Source: Candidatus Babelota bacterium (lineage in GTDB: Bacteria; Babelota; Babeliae; Babelales; Vermiphilaceae). Taken from it: a stretch of DNA of 52,669 bases. The position numbers and the translations under genes are program-made. The notes beneath the pieces were generated by a model. That model made no database searches. It was not told where the DNA came from and was given only the letters and a program-made list of their open reading frames with translations. Below, in pieces: positions 33,121-38,714 of this stretch. The stretch's first letter is position 1; every line of letters begins with the position of its first letter. The DNA is taken from NCBI GenBank assembly GCA_013287855.1, contig JABDCY010000006.1, positions 1-52,669 of the forward strand. The letters are read 5' to 3'.

Positions 33121-35043
33121 ATGGCAAAAATTCTATTATATTACAAATATGTGACCATCTCACATCCACAAGAAATAGTTGCGTGGCAAAAAGCCTTATG
33201 TGCCGCCCTTGATCTCAAAGGCCGCATCTTAATCGCCAAGGAAGGCATCAATGGCACCTTAGGTGGTTCTGCGGACAGTCTCGAAATCTACAAAAAAACC
33301 ATGCTCGCACATCCACTCTTTAAAAAAATCGATTTTAAAGAAAATGACGGTGATATTGCCTACTTTCCACGGCTACGGGTAGTTGAGCGCAACGAGATCG
33401 TCACCATGGGCGTAGATCCTGAAAAAATTACAGCGCAACAATCTGGCAAGCATCTCACACCCCGCCAAGCACACAAATTTTTACAAAGTAAGCCAGATGA
33501 TCTGGTTATTCTTGATACTCGCAATCAGGTTGAATCAGCCATTGGCACGTTCAAGGATGCCATTACCCCACCATTACAACACTTTCGTGATTACCCGGCC
33601 TTCATCGATCAAAATTTGGATACCTTCAAAAATAAACAAGTTTTCATGTTCTGCACCGGCGGAGTACGCTGTGAACGTGCAAGCGCATATTTGAAATCAA
33701 AAGGCGTTACCAAAGAAGTGTATCAACTGGAAGGTGGCATTCACCGCTACATCGAACAATTTCCTGATGGTTTTTTCCGCGGCAAAAATTATGTGTTTGA
33801 TGGCCGTATTGCCGTAAAGGCAAATGACGATATTCTGGGAAAGTGTGCATTGTGTCCCGCCGCTTGTGATGAGTACAATAATTGTTTGAATGCCGACTGT
33901 AATAAACATTTTATTTGCTGTGATGCGTGCGTTGTAAAATATAATTACACCTGCGGGAGCACCTGTTTTGAGTTGGTTAAAAACAACCAAGTACGATTGC
34001 GACCTTTGTACCGAAAAACCAGTATTAATGCATCAAATGAACTACGCGAGAAAACAATTATGAACACGCAAACAACTTCGCATCAACAGCAACCAAGTCC
34101 TCGTTTAATTCAAGAAAATATTCCTCTCAAAGATAAAAACTGGTTCCAAACCGGAGGTCCTGCTCGTTATTTTGCAGAGCCAACCAATGCACAAGAATTT
34201 GCCCAAGCTCTCGATTTCGCTCGCACACAACAACTACCAATTTTTGTACTTGGACAAGGCGCAAATATCCTTATCAGCGATGAAGGGTTTGACGGCCTCG
34301 TAATTCGACCTCAGCTCACACAGATTACGCATGTCATACATAATGATGAAGTTCTTGTGCATGCTGGAGCTGGCGTCACCATGGATGCACTCATCGAATA
34401 CTGTCTTACGCATAATATTCTTGGGCTCGAAGAATTTAGTGGGATACCTGGCACGGTGGGCGGATCGGTTTATATCAACCTCCATTACTTTCAATTTTTG
34501 CTCGAGCAGTTCTTGCTTGATGCACAGGTTATTAATCATCTTGATAGCACCGTAAAAAATGTAACTCCCGCGTGGTTCAACTTTGGCTATAATCAATCAA
34601 CGTTGCTTGCGCAAGAATATTACTTAATTTCTGCAACTTTTCGTTTAAAAAAAGCTACTGATCTTGAAGTTGCTTTTGCGCGTGGCAGACGCGTGGAAAT
34701 CATTAGACATCGCGCAGCACGCTATCCAAACAAAAATACCTGTGGTAGTTTTTTCCGCAATTTTTATCCCGAGGAAGTAGCTGAGTTCATTGCAGGTACA
34801 GACAAAAAACTGATTTTCGTCGCCTATTATCTTGATAAAATCGGCGTCAAAGGCGTCTTGAGCGTTGGTGATGCCGTTGTTTCACATCAACATGCAAATA
34901 TGTTAGTGAATAAAGGCAATGCAACATCAACTGACCTCATCACCTTGGCACGCACAATGCAGGAACTTGTGCAAAAACAATTTGGCATTGTGCCACAGCC
35001 AGAATGCCAATTGGTTGGATTTAAAGAATGCCCATTGTTATAA
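33121..35043 (+). CDS. Fusion: TrhO-type rhodanese tRNA U34 hydroxylase + UDP-N-acetylenolpyruvoylglucosamine reductase (MurB)
   Basis: N-terminal ~300 aa with KEGINGTLGGS, MFCTGGVRCERAS and Cys-rich tail; C-terminal ~320 aa with WFQTGGPA, LGQGANILISDEGFDGLVI, GIPGTVGGSVYIN, CGSFFRN; single open frame. Confidence 0.88.
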   Translation: MAKILLYYKYVTISHPQEIVAWQKALCAALDLKGRILIAKEGINGTLGGSADSLEIYKKTMLAHPLFKKIDFKENDGDIAYFPRLRVVERNEIVTMGVDPEKITAQQSGKHLTPRQAHKFLQSKPDDLVILDTRNQVESAIGTFKDAITPPLQHFRDYPAFIDQNLDTFKNKQVFMFCTGGVRCERASAYLKSKGVTKEVYQLEGGIHRYIEQFPDGFFRGKNYVFDGRIAVKANDDILGKCALCPAACDEYNNCLNADCNKHFICCDACVVKYNYTCGSTCFELVKNNQVRLRPLYRKTSINASNELREKTIMNTQTTSHQQQPSPRLIQENIPLKDKNWFQTGGPARYFAEPTNAQEFAQALDFARTQQLPIFVLGQGANILISDEGFDGLVIRPQLTQITHVIHNDEVLVHAGAGVTMDALIEYCLTHNILGLEEFSGIPGTVGGSVYINLHYFQFLLEQFLLDAQVINHLDSTVKNVTPAWFNFGYNQSTLLAQEYYLISATFRLKKATDLEVAFARGRRVEIIRHRAARYPNKNTCGSFFRNFYPEEVAEFIAGTDKKLIFVAYYLDKIGVKGVLSVGDAVVSHQHANMLVNKGNATSTDLITLARTMQELVQKQFGIVPQPECQLVGFKECPLL

Positions 35044-35055
35044 AAAGGACCTATC

Positions 35056-36201
35056 ATGAAAAAATTTTTATTTTACGCCTTGCCGATTTTAATCACACTT
35101 CACGTGCAGGCTATGCGTAAAAATCAGCAGGATGATTCTTATCGCACGCTTAAAGGCATGACGGGGTTCCTTCATCGTATGTCTGAACAGATTGGTGATA
35201 ATAACTTTATCGTTAATTCAGTAGGCGTCTCAGAGGACTTCCCTGAATATGCTGAAGTCAGGCGGCTTGATGATAATCGCTTAGGAAAAAGATTCCAGTT
35301 TCCCAAAGGTCAGTCGTCCTACAACTTAACAGTGATCGATAACACTACGTTTGTCGCAAATCACATTCCTAAATTGGGAAAGTTACCTCAAAAAAATTTT
35401 TCGGTGAATAATATTGAAAACGCTACAACAAGATTTTTGCCTGGCCCAGGAACTTCAACTTCATGTTTAGTGCGATTAACCGATAGAGAAGTTGTTGTTG
35501 GTGGATGGGCAGACACCGACGCCATCCTTTTATATGATCTGCGTACCAATAAACCGAGCGGCTTTAACACGGGCAAGGCTGCAATAACAGCTCTTGCAAG
35601 TTTACCTAATAACAGCAACCAAATTTTATCTGGTCAGTACGGAGCAACAACTATAAAGCTCTGGGATGCAAGAAAGCCAAATAAGCCGATGCATGAACTT
35701 AAGGGCCACACTGATTCGGTAACAGGAATCTCTGCAACAATTAATAAACATAGTCTTTGGCCACATGTTGTCTCAATACAAAATGAGTCGGGTATAATTT
35801 GGAATTTGCAAGATAGTATTCCTTATAGAACATTTAGTATCGGCAAAAAAATGCTTATGCTAAAAGCGTTACGAAATCAGTACATTGCTACTATAGGAGA
35901 ATGGGGCCATGAAATATTTTTATTTGATCTGCATGGCAATTTGATAAAGACCCTGCGAGCTGATTATGAAGATCCTGATCTTTATCTTACGTGCGTAAAT
36001 GAACTGAGCAATAATGACATCCTTGCGACTGGCGAAGGATATATTAAATTATACAGGACACCTACTGAACAGAAAAGAGCTGATTATGAAGATGATTTTG
36101 ATGCTGATATAGATGCTTTAGAAACCGGCATTGAAACAGTGGTGAGTGGTGTTGGCGATGTGGTTCTCAAAATAGGTGATATTTGCGAGGATATTTTTTA
36201 G
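35056..36201 (+). CDS. Secreted WD40-repeat protein 1
   Basis: Signal peptide; TTIKLWDARKPNKPMHELKGHTDSV and related repeats. Confidence 0.8.
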   Translation: MKKFLFYALPILITLHVQAMRKNQQDDSYRTLKGMTGFLHRMSEQIGDNNFIVNSVGVSEDFPEYAEVRRLDDNRLGKRFQFPKGQSSYNLTVIDNTTFVANHIPKLGKLPQKNFSVNNIENATTRFLPGPGTSTSCLVRLTDREVVVGGWADTDAILLYDLRTNKPSGFNTGKAAITALASLPNNSNQILSGQYGATTIKLWDARKPNKPMHELKGHTDSVTGISATINKHSLWPHVVSIQNESGIIWNLQDSIPYRTFSIGKKMLMLKALRNQYIATIGEWGHEIFLFDLHGNLIKTLRADYEDPDLYLTCVNELSNNDILATGEGYIKLYRTPTEQKRADYEDDFDADIDALETGIETVVSGVGDVVLKIGDICEDIF

Positions 36202-36236
36202 CCATTGGATGAGATGTAAAATCAAGGAGGTATGTA

Positions 36237-36371
36237 GTGAAAAAGATACTGCTATGCACCCCACTCATCACCTTGGCATGCACTATGCAGGAGCTTGTAC
36301 AAAAACAATTTGGCATTGTGCCACAGCCTGAATGTCAATTGGTTGGATTTAAAGAATATCCATTGTTATAA
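36237..36371 (+). pseudogene. Chimeric mini-ORF: signal-peptide-like start joined to a duplicated murB 3' end
   Basis: VKKILLCTPLITLACTMQELVQKQFGIVPQPECQLVGFKEYPLL*; 36264-36371 matches 34936-35043 with 8 mismatches in 108 nt, no indel; AAGGAGG upstream. Confidence 0.85.
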
Positions 36372-36482
36372 ATTGATGTAAAAAATCTAAACATATTTTT
36401 GCATGTCTTGACTTTACTACTAAAACTAAGGAACCATTCAGATAATTCTTTCTGATTTTTCACCATACTTAAGGAGAGTGGG

Positions 36483-37597
36483 TTGAAAAAATTGTTCCTT
36501 TGTTTACACATTCTTTTCAGCATGCTCTATGCATGTACCATGCAATGCCATAAAGTTAAACTATCGGAAATCATACAAAAAACTTCACGCCCGTATCGTT
36601 CACATGAGATGAAAAATGATGTAGAGCTGCGAGATGTTGAACAGATTGGCAGCACGGAAAGATTTATTGTTAACTCAAACCACATCGACGTGCGGCATCT
36701 GTGACCAATCAGCTCGTAACAAGACTCTATTTTCCACCTTCTTGTCCTTCGTATCGCATGAAAATGGTTAATGACCGTGACATTGTTGCAAGTGTTTTCT
36801 CGGATGGCAACGAACATCCTGCTAACTATTTTTATCACCGTAAACTTAATGACCCGCAATTTCAACACATACTTCCTGGTCCCACAGAAGCTGTCACCTG
36901 TTTCAGTCCATTAACGGATAATGAATTTTTAGTTGGTGGACGCAATGCGACCGCTAAAGCAGCTATCGTCAAATATGATCTAAGATCATACGCGGCAACT
37001 AAATTTTCGACGGGCACAACGCAGATTACCTGTCTTGAAAAAAATCCTCATAACAATCTACAATTCTTTGCAGGAAACACAGGAAGCACTACCATCAAAC
37101 TCTGGGACGTGCGAAATACAGACAAACCCGTTGCAGAATTACAAGGACATAAATCTTATCCTGTTAGCATCAGTGCAACAGAAAATCAAAATAGCGCTTA
37201 TCCGCATCTTGTTTCTATCGCAGATCAAGAAGAAGGATATGAACCGGGTCTAATTTGGGACTTTAAAAATAGCGCGCCGGTCGCTAAATTTACTCATTCT
37301 TTTGGACGTCCAACTATAGTGCGTTCTCTAAAAAATGGAACTCTTGCTCTCTGCGCCGATTGTGAAGATGACATAGAAACATTTGATCTGACAACGGGAG
37401 AACAATTAGATACGTTGCATGGCAGTGATTATGCCACCTGCCTGAGTGAACTAAACAATGGTGACTTAATAACCTCTGCTATCGCATTTGTAGAGTTTTA
37501 CAAAACCAAATCTAAAAAAATTGAAGATGATGATCTTGAAGATATAGTTGCTACTATGGTAGATGCGGCAGATGAGCTTGCCGAAATATTCTGGTGA
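36483..37597 (+). pseudogene. WD40-repeat protein 2, split by a frameshift at ~36700
   Basis: ORFs 36483-36704 and 36701-37597 align consecutively to WD40 protein 1; overlap GTGA. Confidence 0.75.
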
Positions 37598-37607
37598 GGA
37601 AAACGCT

Positions 37608-38714
37608 ATGAAAAAATTAGTTTCATCAGTTGCTTTATCACTTGCGATGCAACTCTCAACTATGCAGGAAAAAATTACAATGCAATCACGAGATGGTTCA
37701 TATCGCACGTTGAAACATCAAGATTGGCTAGTTAATGCGGCTATTAACATCGAATTGATCCCACGGGGGAAAATGATTACAACAGGCTGCAATGCTATTA
37801 ATGTTTGGGATCTTGCAAAAGATACACCAATTAACATAATGAGAGACCTGCATGGTAGAATAACATGCGCAAAAATGATTTCCGACAATAACATCGCCAC
37901 CACAAAAACCACTTCGCTCGTTGTCACAATTCAAGACTTGCAAGGGAATGTTATTCGAAGCTTTTTTGGTCCTTGGGCTGTACTTGGCCATAGCATATGC
38001 AAACTGAATAACCATGAATTTGCTGTAGGTGGTTCTGAACAAAACAATAATCCTTCTCTAGTTGTTTTTGATCAAAGATCTCCTGGCCAAAAGCCATCTA
38101 TCCGAATGCGCCCTCGCGATTCATTAGAAAAAGATATCACTGCTCTTGAATGCTTAGACGAAAAACACTTATTGGCTGGACACTGGAATAATGCACCGGA
38201 AATTACTTTGTGGGATATCAGAAAGCCCGAGCGAGAACAAGGTGGTTTTACTACACAAGGTTCTCCACATAGCATTGCAGTGTTAGGAAAAACAGAACAA
38301 CATCCGCTCATAACTTCGGTAGAAAATGATTCCTTCCAACATCGCATTCTAAACTTGAAGGGTGAAATTGTTGCCAAATACACCACTCTCAGTCCTAATA
38401 AAGTAGTAACGTCGCTTGAATTTAATAAAGCATTTGCGACTGGTGGCGATAATGGAGATCTATCGCTCTTTACTCGAAGAGGAGCATTACTTGCGCTTCT
38501 TAAAGGACACACTACACGCGTACAAGATATTACTGAATTACCACATGGTGATGTACTTTCTGCGGATCTCGATGGTTACATAAAATTCTGGAAATTTCCT
38601 TCTCAAGAAAGTAAAGACAAAGAAAAAGATCTTGAAGATACTTTTTTTAGTGGTATTGAAACTGTTGTAGAAATGGCAGAAGACTTTGCTATCGATATGC
38701 TTGATGATATCTAA
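37608..38714 (+). CDS. Secreted WD40-repeat protein 3
   Basis: MKKLVSSVALSLAMQLSTM leader; INVWDLAKD, ITLWDIRKP, GHTTRVQDITELPHGDVLSADLDGYIKFW. Confidence 0.8.
   Translation: MKKLVSSVALSLAMQLSTMQEKITMQSRDGSYRTLKHQDWLVNAAINIELIPRGKMITTGCNAINVWDLAKDTPINIMRDLHGRITCAKMISDNNIATTKTTSLVVTIQDLQGNVIRSFFGPWAVLGHSICKLNNHEFAVGGSEQNNNPSLVVFDQRSPGQKPSIRMRPRDSLEKDITALECLDEKHLLAGHWNNAPEITLWDIRKPEREQGGFTTQGSPHSIAVLGKTEQHPLITSVENDSFQHRILNLKGEIVAKYTTLSPNKVVTSLEFNKAFATGGDNGDLSLFTRRGALLALLKGHTTRVQDITELPHGDVLSADLDGYIKFWKFPSQESKDKEKDLEDTFFSGIETVVEMAEDFAIDMLDDI

What the first reader, a model, noticed from the sequence alone, without database searches (positions are those of the whole stretch)
33121..35043. In-frame TrhO-MurB fusion linking tRNA wobble hydroxylation and peptidoglycan precursor synthesis
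Seen: one 640-codon frame, N-terminal half with UPF0176/TrhO hallmarks (active-site Cys in CTGGVRCE plus a Cys-rich tail), C-terminal half with MurB FAD and catalytic motifs, joined by a short Q/S/P-rich linker. An internal ATG (MNTQTTSHQ, ~34060) could give separate MurB. Established: TrhO makes ho5U34 in tRNA; MurB reduces enolpyruvyl-UDP-GlcNAc. I know of no such fusion, but cannot search.
Basis: partly seen in the sequence, partly recalled or inferred. Interest (0 to 1): 0.8.

Follow-up and report, generated by a model that had tools for sequence, protein, structure and literature searches.

The report
One-genome TrhO–MurB reading-frame fusion
Two neighbouring housekeeping genes, one that modifies tRNA and one that helps build the cell wall, read as a single open frame in one uncultured Dependentiae genome, whereas all 50 relatives examined keep a stop codon between them, so this is a lone gene read-through (or an assembly slip) and not a new kind of system.

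Summary
The 640-codon frame at 33121-35043 is real in this sequence: an intact TrhO (UPF0176) N-half and an intact MurB C-half. Tight same-strand trhO-murB neighbours are common in this phylum (Dependentiae/Babeliales), and in all 50 relatives with such a pair a stop codon separates the genes. No other fusion was seen in 101 Dependentiae genomes or in a sample of 287 genomes from another phylum. There is no designed linker: residues 300-313 are TrhO's variable tail, and the Q/S/P-rich stretch is MurB's own N-terminal extension, starting at its native ATG (34060). The fusion is most simply a recent loss of TrhO's stop, by one-base indel or substitution. The MAG carries homopolymer-length frameshifts in conserved genes (ppsA, sufB), so an assembly error cannot be excluded without reads; codon usage supports the frame through the tail. 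If real, it most likely makes a 72-kDa tethered protein in which each enzyme does its usual job; nothing supports a functional link between the pathways. A side finding may be more interesting: Dependentiae MurB replaces the substrate-carboxylate Arg with Asn/Asp in all 62 homologues.

The parts
33121..35043 (+). fused open reading frame, 640 codons plus TAA
33121..33966 (+). TrhO/UPF0176 domain (residues 1-282: UPF0176_N, rhodanese, Rhodanese_C)
   Evidence: solved TrhO 9j5o matched over residues 3-292
33652..33675 (+). rhodanese active-site loop CTGGVRCE (Cys178)
   Evidence: Cys178, Arg183, Cys184 and Glu185 invariant in 54 Dependentiae homologues; CXGGXR motif of TrhO in PMC6599085
34018..34059 (+). 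variable TrhO C-terminal tail, residues 300-313 (TSINASNELREKTI); relatives have their stop in this stretch or close to it
   Evidence: codon-usage score +6.05 against 4.95 +/- 3.28 in frame and -2.39 +/- 3.49 off frame
34014..34018 (+). A5 run in the tail (possible slippage site)
34051..34054 (+). A4 run next to the murB start (possible slippage site)
34060..34063 (+). native-position murB ATG within ATGA; the TGA at 34061-34063 is in frame +1 relative to trhO
34060..35043 (+). MurB (327 aa if started at 34060)
   Evidence: AlphaFold2 pLDDT 94.0, best solved match S. aureus MurB 1hsk, E 1e-28

Best explanation
Shown: a tightly packed trhO-murB gene pair common in Dependentiae has no stop codon between its genes in this one genome sequence, giving one 640-codon frame with both enzymes otherwise complete. 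Inferred: the loss is recent and accidental (a one-base indel in an A-run of TrhO's tail, or a stop-codon substitution). The cell translates a 72-kDa tethered protein, possibly with some separate MurB from the retained ATG at 34060. The TrhO half still hydroxylates U34 of tRNA, and the MurB half still reduces UDP-GlcNAc-enolpyruvate, each independently. The tether has no regulatory role.
For: Both halves score as their families and keep residues invariant in the phylum. murA and murC are present in the same genome, so a MurB is needed, and only one full-length MurB was found. The pair is neighbouring and separated by a stop in 50 of 50 relatives. Met314 sits where native MurB starts lie. Codon usage fits frame 0 for residues 300-313: score +6.05, in-frame mean 4.95, off-frame mean -2.39. 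The ATGA at 34060 matches the 4-nt overlap of several relatives, and the nearest relatives in the tree have the overlap frame (f2). Stop loss by substitution is also easy: four codons of residues 300-313 lie one substitution from a stop.
Against: One MAG, 68% complete, with no second species of its genus held. The same MAG has homopolymer-length frameshifts in ppsA (two) and sufB (one) among 209 orthologue hits to G022 and 75 to G009, so an assembly error is a live alternative. No expression data. The Shine-Dalgarno match before 34060 is weak (-3.0 kcal/mol, within the range of non-start internal ATGs), so separate MurB is uncertain.
Confidence: 0.57

Rival explanations
1. Assembly or sequencing artefact: a one-base homopolymer-length error in the TrhO tail joins two genes that in the organism are separate and overlap by 4 nt (ATGA).
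For: All three indels inferred in conserved genes of this MAG lie in homopolymers (T6 and A8 in ppsA, T5 in sufB) and read most simply as too long. The tail has A5 and A4 runs. Frame +1 is open to a TGA overlapping the murB ATG, and nearest relatives have that frame relation.
Against: The rate is low, about 3 indels per roughly 200-300 kb of aligned coding sequence; by my estimate fewer than 0.1 such artefactual fusions are expected per genome. Codon usage favours frame 0 up to about residue 310, which speaks against the A5 run as the site, though not against the A4 run.
Confidence: 0.33
2. A selected bifunctional protein that couples wobble-uridine hydroxylation to peptidoglycan precursor synthesis.
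For: Intact domains in one frame; gene adjacency in many Dependentiae suggests co-expression.
Against: Seen in 1 of 51 pairs. No dedicated linker: the junction is made of the normal tail of one protein and the normal N-terminal extension of the other. In several Dependentiae families the two genes lie on different contigs or far apart. No paper linking the two was found.
Confidence: 0.05
3. The fused frame is a step in decay: TrhO is being lost, and MurB is made from its own start.
For: Many Dependentiae genomes show a MurB match but no TrhO match; a truncated murB 3' copy lies nearby at 36264-36372, so the region rearranges.
Against: The TrhO half has no stop or frameshift and keeps all invariant residues; its codon usage is normal up to the junction.
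Confidence: 0.05

Closest known systems
TrhO (YceA, UPF0176), oxygen-dependent tRNA U34 hydroxylase; PDB 9j5o and 4f67
   Same: UPF0176_N, rhodanese and Rhodanese_C domains, CTGGxR loop, cysteine-rich C-terminal part
   Different: here followed in frame by MurB instead of a stop codon
MurB, UDP-N-acetylenolpyruvoylglucosamine reductase (S. aureus 1hsk, E. coli 1mbb/2mbr)
   Same: fold (Foldseek E 1e-28 to 1hsk), FAD-binding domain, Ser543 and Glu628 at the catalytic Ser and Glu positions
   Different: GAN instead of GSN; NLHYF instead of the usual NAGAYGGE loop; Asn/Asp where other MurBs have the Arg of the YRxS motif (all Dependentiae examined, not specific to the fusion)
Other fusions of the TrhO family: YceA-TrmR in oomycetes and a diatom (as stated in PMC6599085)
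   Same: a TrhO homologue fused to another enzyme
   Different: that partner acts in the same tRNA modification pathway; MurB does not

Membership tests
TrhO / UPF0176 | equivalog HMM above curated cut-off | tested here: met
   NF001133: 244.5 bits, cut-off 170
TrhO / UPF0176 | CXGGXR rhodanese loop with active-site Cys | tested here: met
   C178 T G G V R183; Cys178 and Arg183 invariant in 54 homologues; motif from PMC6599085
TrhO / UPF0176 | O2-dependent ho5U34 formation | not testable with these tools
   needs an assay
MurB | equivalog HMM above curated cut-off | tested here: met
   TIGR00179: 160.3 bits, cut-off 144.5
MurB | MurB fold (FAD_binding_4 plus MurB_C) | tested here: met
   Pfam; AlphaFold2 model pLDDT 94 and top 18 PDB matches all MurB
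MurB | catalytic Ser, Glu and substrate-binding Arg (E. coli Ser229, Glu325, Arg159) | tested here: inconclusive
   Ser543 and Glu628 present; the Arg position is Asn491, and Asn or Asp in all 62 Dependentiae homologues; role of Arg159 and Glu325 from PMC12844806
TrhO-MurB fusion as an established architecture | recurs in more than one species | tested here: not met
   0 of 50 other Dependentiae pairs fused; none seen among listed matches of 287 genomes of another phylum

The most novel reading that the evidence does not exclude
The organism truly makes a stable 72-kDa TrhO-MurB protein as its only source of both enzymes, a previously unreported domain combination joining tRNA wobble modification and cell-wall precursor synthesis in one polypeptide.
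Probability: 0.25. Interest if true: 0.4.

Novelty: new variant of a known kind. Interest (0 to 1): 0.22.

Why it matters
If confirmed, it would be a fresh example of how neighbouring, translationally coupled bacterial genes become one protein by loss of a stop, caught while the downstream start codon is still in place. It would also caution against reading a functional link into a single-genome fusion. It does not by itself connect tRNA modification with cell-wall synthesis.

Tried and rejected
Two other apparent fusions in search output (G026, open frame 851; G068, open frame 700) were rejected: both have a TAA after TrhO. A single-sequence AlphaFold2 run of the whole fusion gave a useless model (pLDDT 35.7). 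A joint alignment of the fusion with separate TrhO and MurB proteins misaligned the TrhO rows and was not used. An A5-run indel as the cause is disfavoured by codon usage. No paper links TrhO with MurB (the one hit is unrelated).

Full report
Observation. The frame at 33121-35043 is open for 640 codons. Residues 4-233 match the NCBIfam TrhO equivalog above its cut-off, with UPF0176_N, Rhodanese and Rhodanese_C in Pfam. Residues 340-633 match murB above its cut-off. A frame of this length with two complete domains is not chance.

Where it comes from. The window lies in a 1.12-Mb, 48-contig MAG of 68% completeness. Relatives are named Candidatus Dependentiae/Babeliales. The nearest full-length matches in held genomes are only about 60% identical, and no second genome of the genus is held.

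Relatives. In 101 Dependentiae genomes, 98 have a match. I extracted the same-strand trhO-murB neighbour pairs: 50 relatives plus the window. All 50 have a stop codon after TrhO. In 13 the two genes share a frame with a stop between them. In 18 the start of murB overlaps the end of trhO by 1 to 20 nt (often ATGA or TAATG), and in 16 there is a gap of 0-50 nt. TrhO tails are highly variable after the last conserved cysteines and end at positions corresponding to about residues 300-326 of the window protein. MurB N-terminal extensions are equally variable. The window's junction is therefore TrhO tail plus MurB N-extension with nothing inserted, and Met314 is at the native MurB start. In a sample of 287 genomes of another phylum (reached through a Magasanikbacteria contig) the listed TrhO and MurB matches are separate and not adjacent.

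Real or artefact. I compared 1.05 Mb of the own genome with 0.8 Mb of G022 and 0.3 Mb of G009. Among 209 orthologue hits from G022 and 75 from G009, the conserved genes ppsA and sufB are frameshifted in the window's genome, at homopolymers (T6, A8, T5) that read most simply as too long. So the MAG does contain homopolymer indels, whether errors or real. In the TrhO tail, A5 (34014) and A4 (34051) runs are present, and the +1 frame is open to a TGA that overlaps the murB ATG as ATGA. The closest relatives on a TrhO+MurB tree have exactly that frame relation, though at long distances (0.74 substitutions per site or more) and with moderate support. Against an artefact: the codon usage of residues 300-313 in frame 0 scores +6.05, like genuine coding windows (mean 4.95, s.d. 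3.28), whereas the +1 frame scores -1.44, like off-frame windows (mean -2.39, s.d. 3.49). This argues that frame 0 is right up to about residue 310. It does not exclude a one-base change at the A4 run. From the indel rate I estimate (inference) fewer than 0.1 artefactual fusions per genome, so I hold about 0.6-0.65 that the frame is open in the organism.

Function. Cys178 and Arg183 of the CXGGXR loop and Cys242, 245, 255, 260 and 267 are invariant in 54 homologues. The MurB half models with pLDDT 94.0 and matches solved MurBs best, with the catalytic Ser543 and Glu628 in place. murA and murC are present, and no second full-length MurB was found, so the MurB half is probably needed. No peptidase-U32 (TrhP-type) protein was found in this incomplete genome, and nothing above the cut-off for the CmoB family. 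TrhO may therefore be the only route to ho5U34, but absence from a 68% genome is weak evidence. Each half can be expected to act alone. The internal ATG has a weak ribosome-binding match (-3.0 kcal/mol; gene starts have a median of -5.0, internal ATGs -1.7). In the relatives whose genes overlap, murB starts also have little such signal (median -0.7) and presumably rely on termination-reinitiation. Loss of the stop would remove that, so most MurB would be made as the fusion (inference).

Verdict. The sequence observation stands. It is a single-genome read-through of a common neighbour pair, not a known or recurring architecture, and possibly an assembly slip. No evidence links tRNA hydroxylation with cell-wall synthesis beyond the shared gene neighbourhood.

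Noticed in passing
window 34591-34593 (residue 491) and MurB of 62 Dependentiae homologues: The Arg of the MurB YRxS motif (E. coli Arg159, which binds the substrate carboxylate) is Asn (35) or Asp (27) in every Dependentiae MurB examined, together with GAN for GSN and an NLHYF loop with an invariant His in place of the usual NAGAYGGE. murA and murC are present, so this may be a divergent working MurB subfamily.
   Followed up: partly
window 36264-36372: A 109-bp copy of the 3' end of murB (93% identical to 34936-35044) lies between two WD40-repeat-like genes; it keeps the Tyr of GFKEYPLL usual in relatives where the full gene has Cys.
   Followed up: partly
G000:C8 about 1680 and 2640 (L094); G000:C2 about 70060 (L144): ppsA (two places) and sufB are frameshifted at homopolymers in the window's genome: a quality warning for single-base features in this MAG.
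   Followed up: yes
window 35056-38714: Tandem array of three diverged WD40-repeat-like proteins, some with signal-peptide-like N-termini, directly downstream of murB.
   Followed up: no
L142:9459-11147 (G000:C1): A 562-aa protein in the window's genome corresponds to two adjacent separate ORFs in relative G009 (L125): another gene fusion or split; the second half looks glycosyltransferase-like by eye.
   Followed up: no
L201 (G384), L039: Dependentiae-like MurB (55-57% identity) in genomes or contigs filed under other phyla, L201 with the same Asn/Asp-type motif: horizontal transfer or mis-binned contigs.
   Followed up: no
Dependentiae genomes: trhO and murB are same-strand neighbours in about half of the Dependentiae genomes held, often overlapping by 1-20 nt: a common pair of functionally unrelated genes.
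   Followed up: yes
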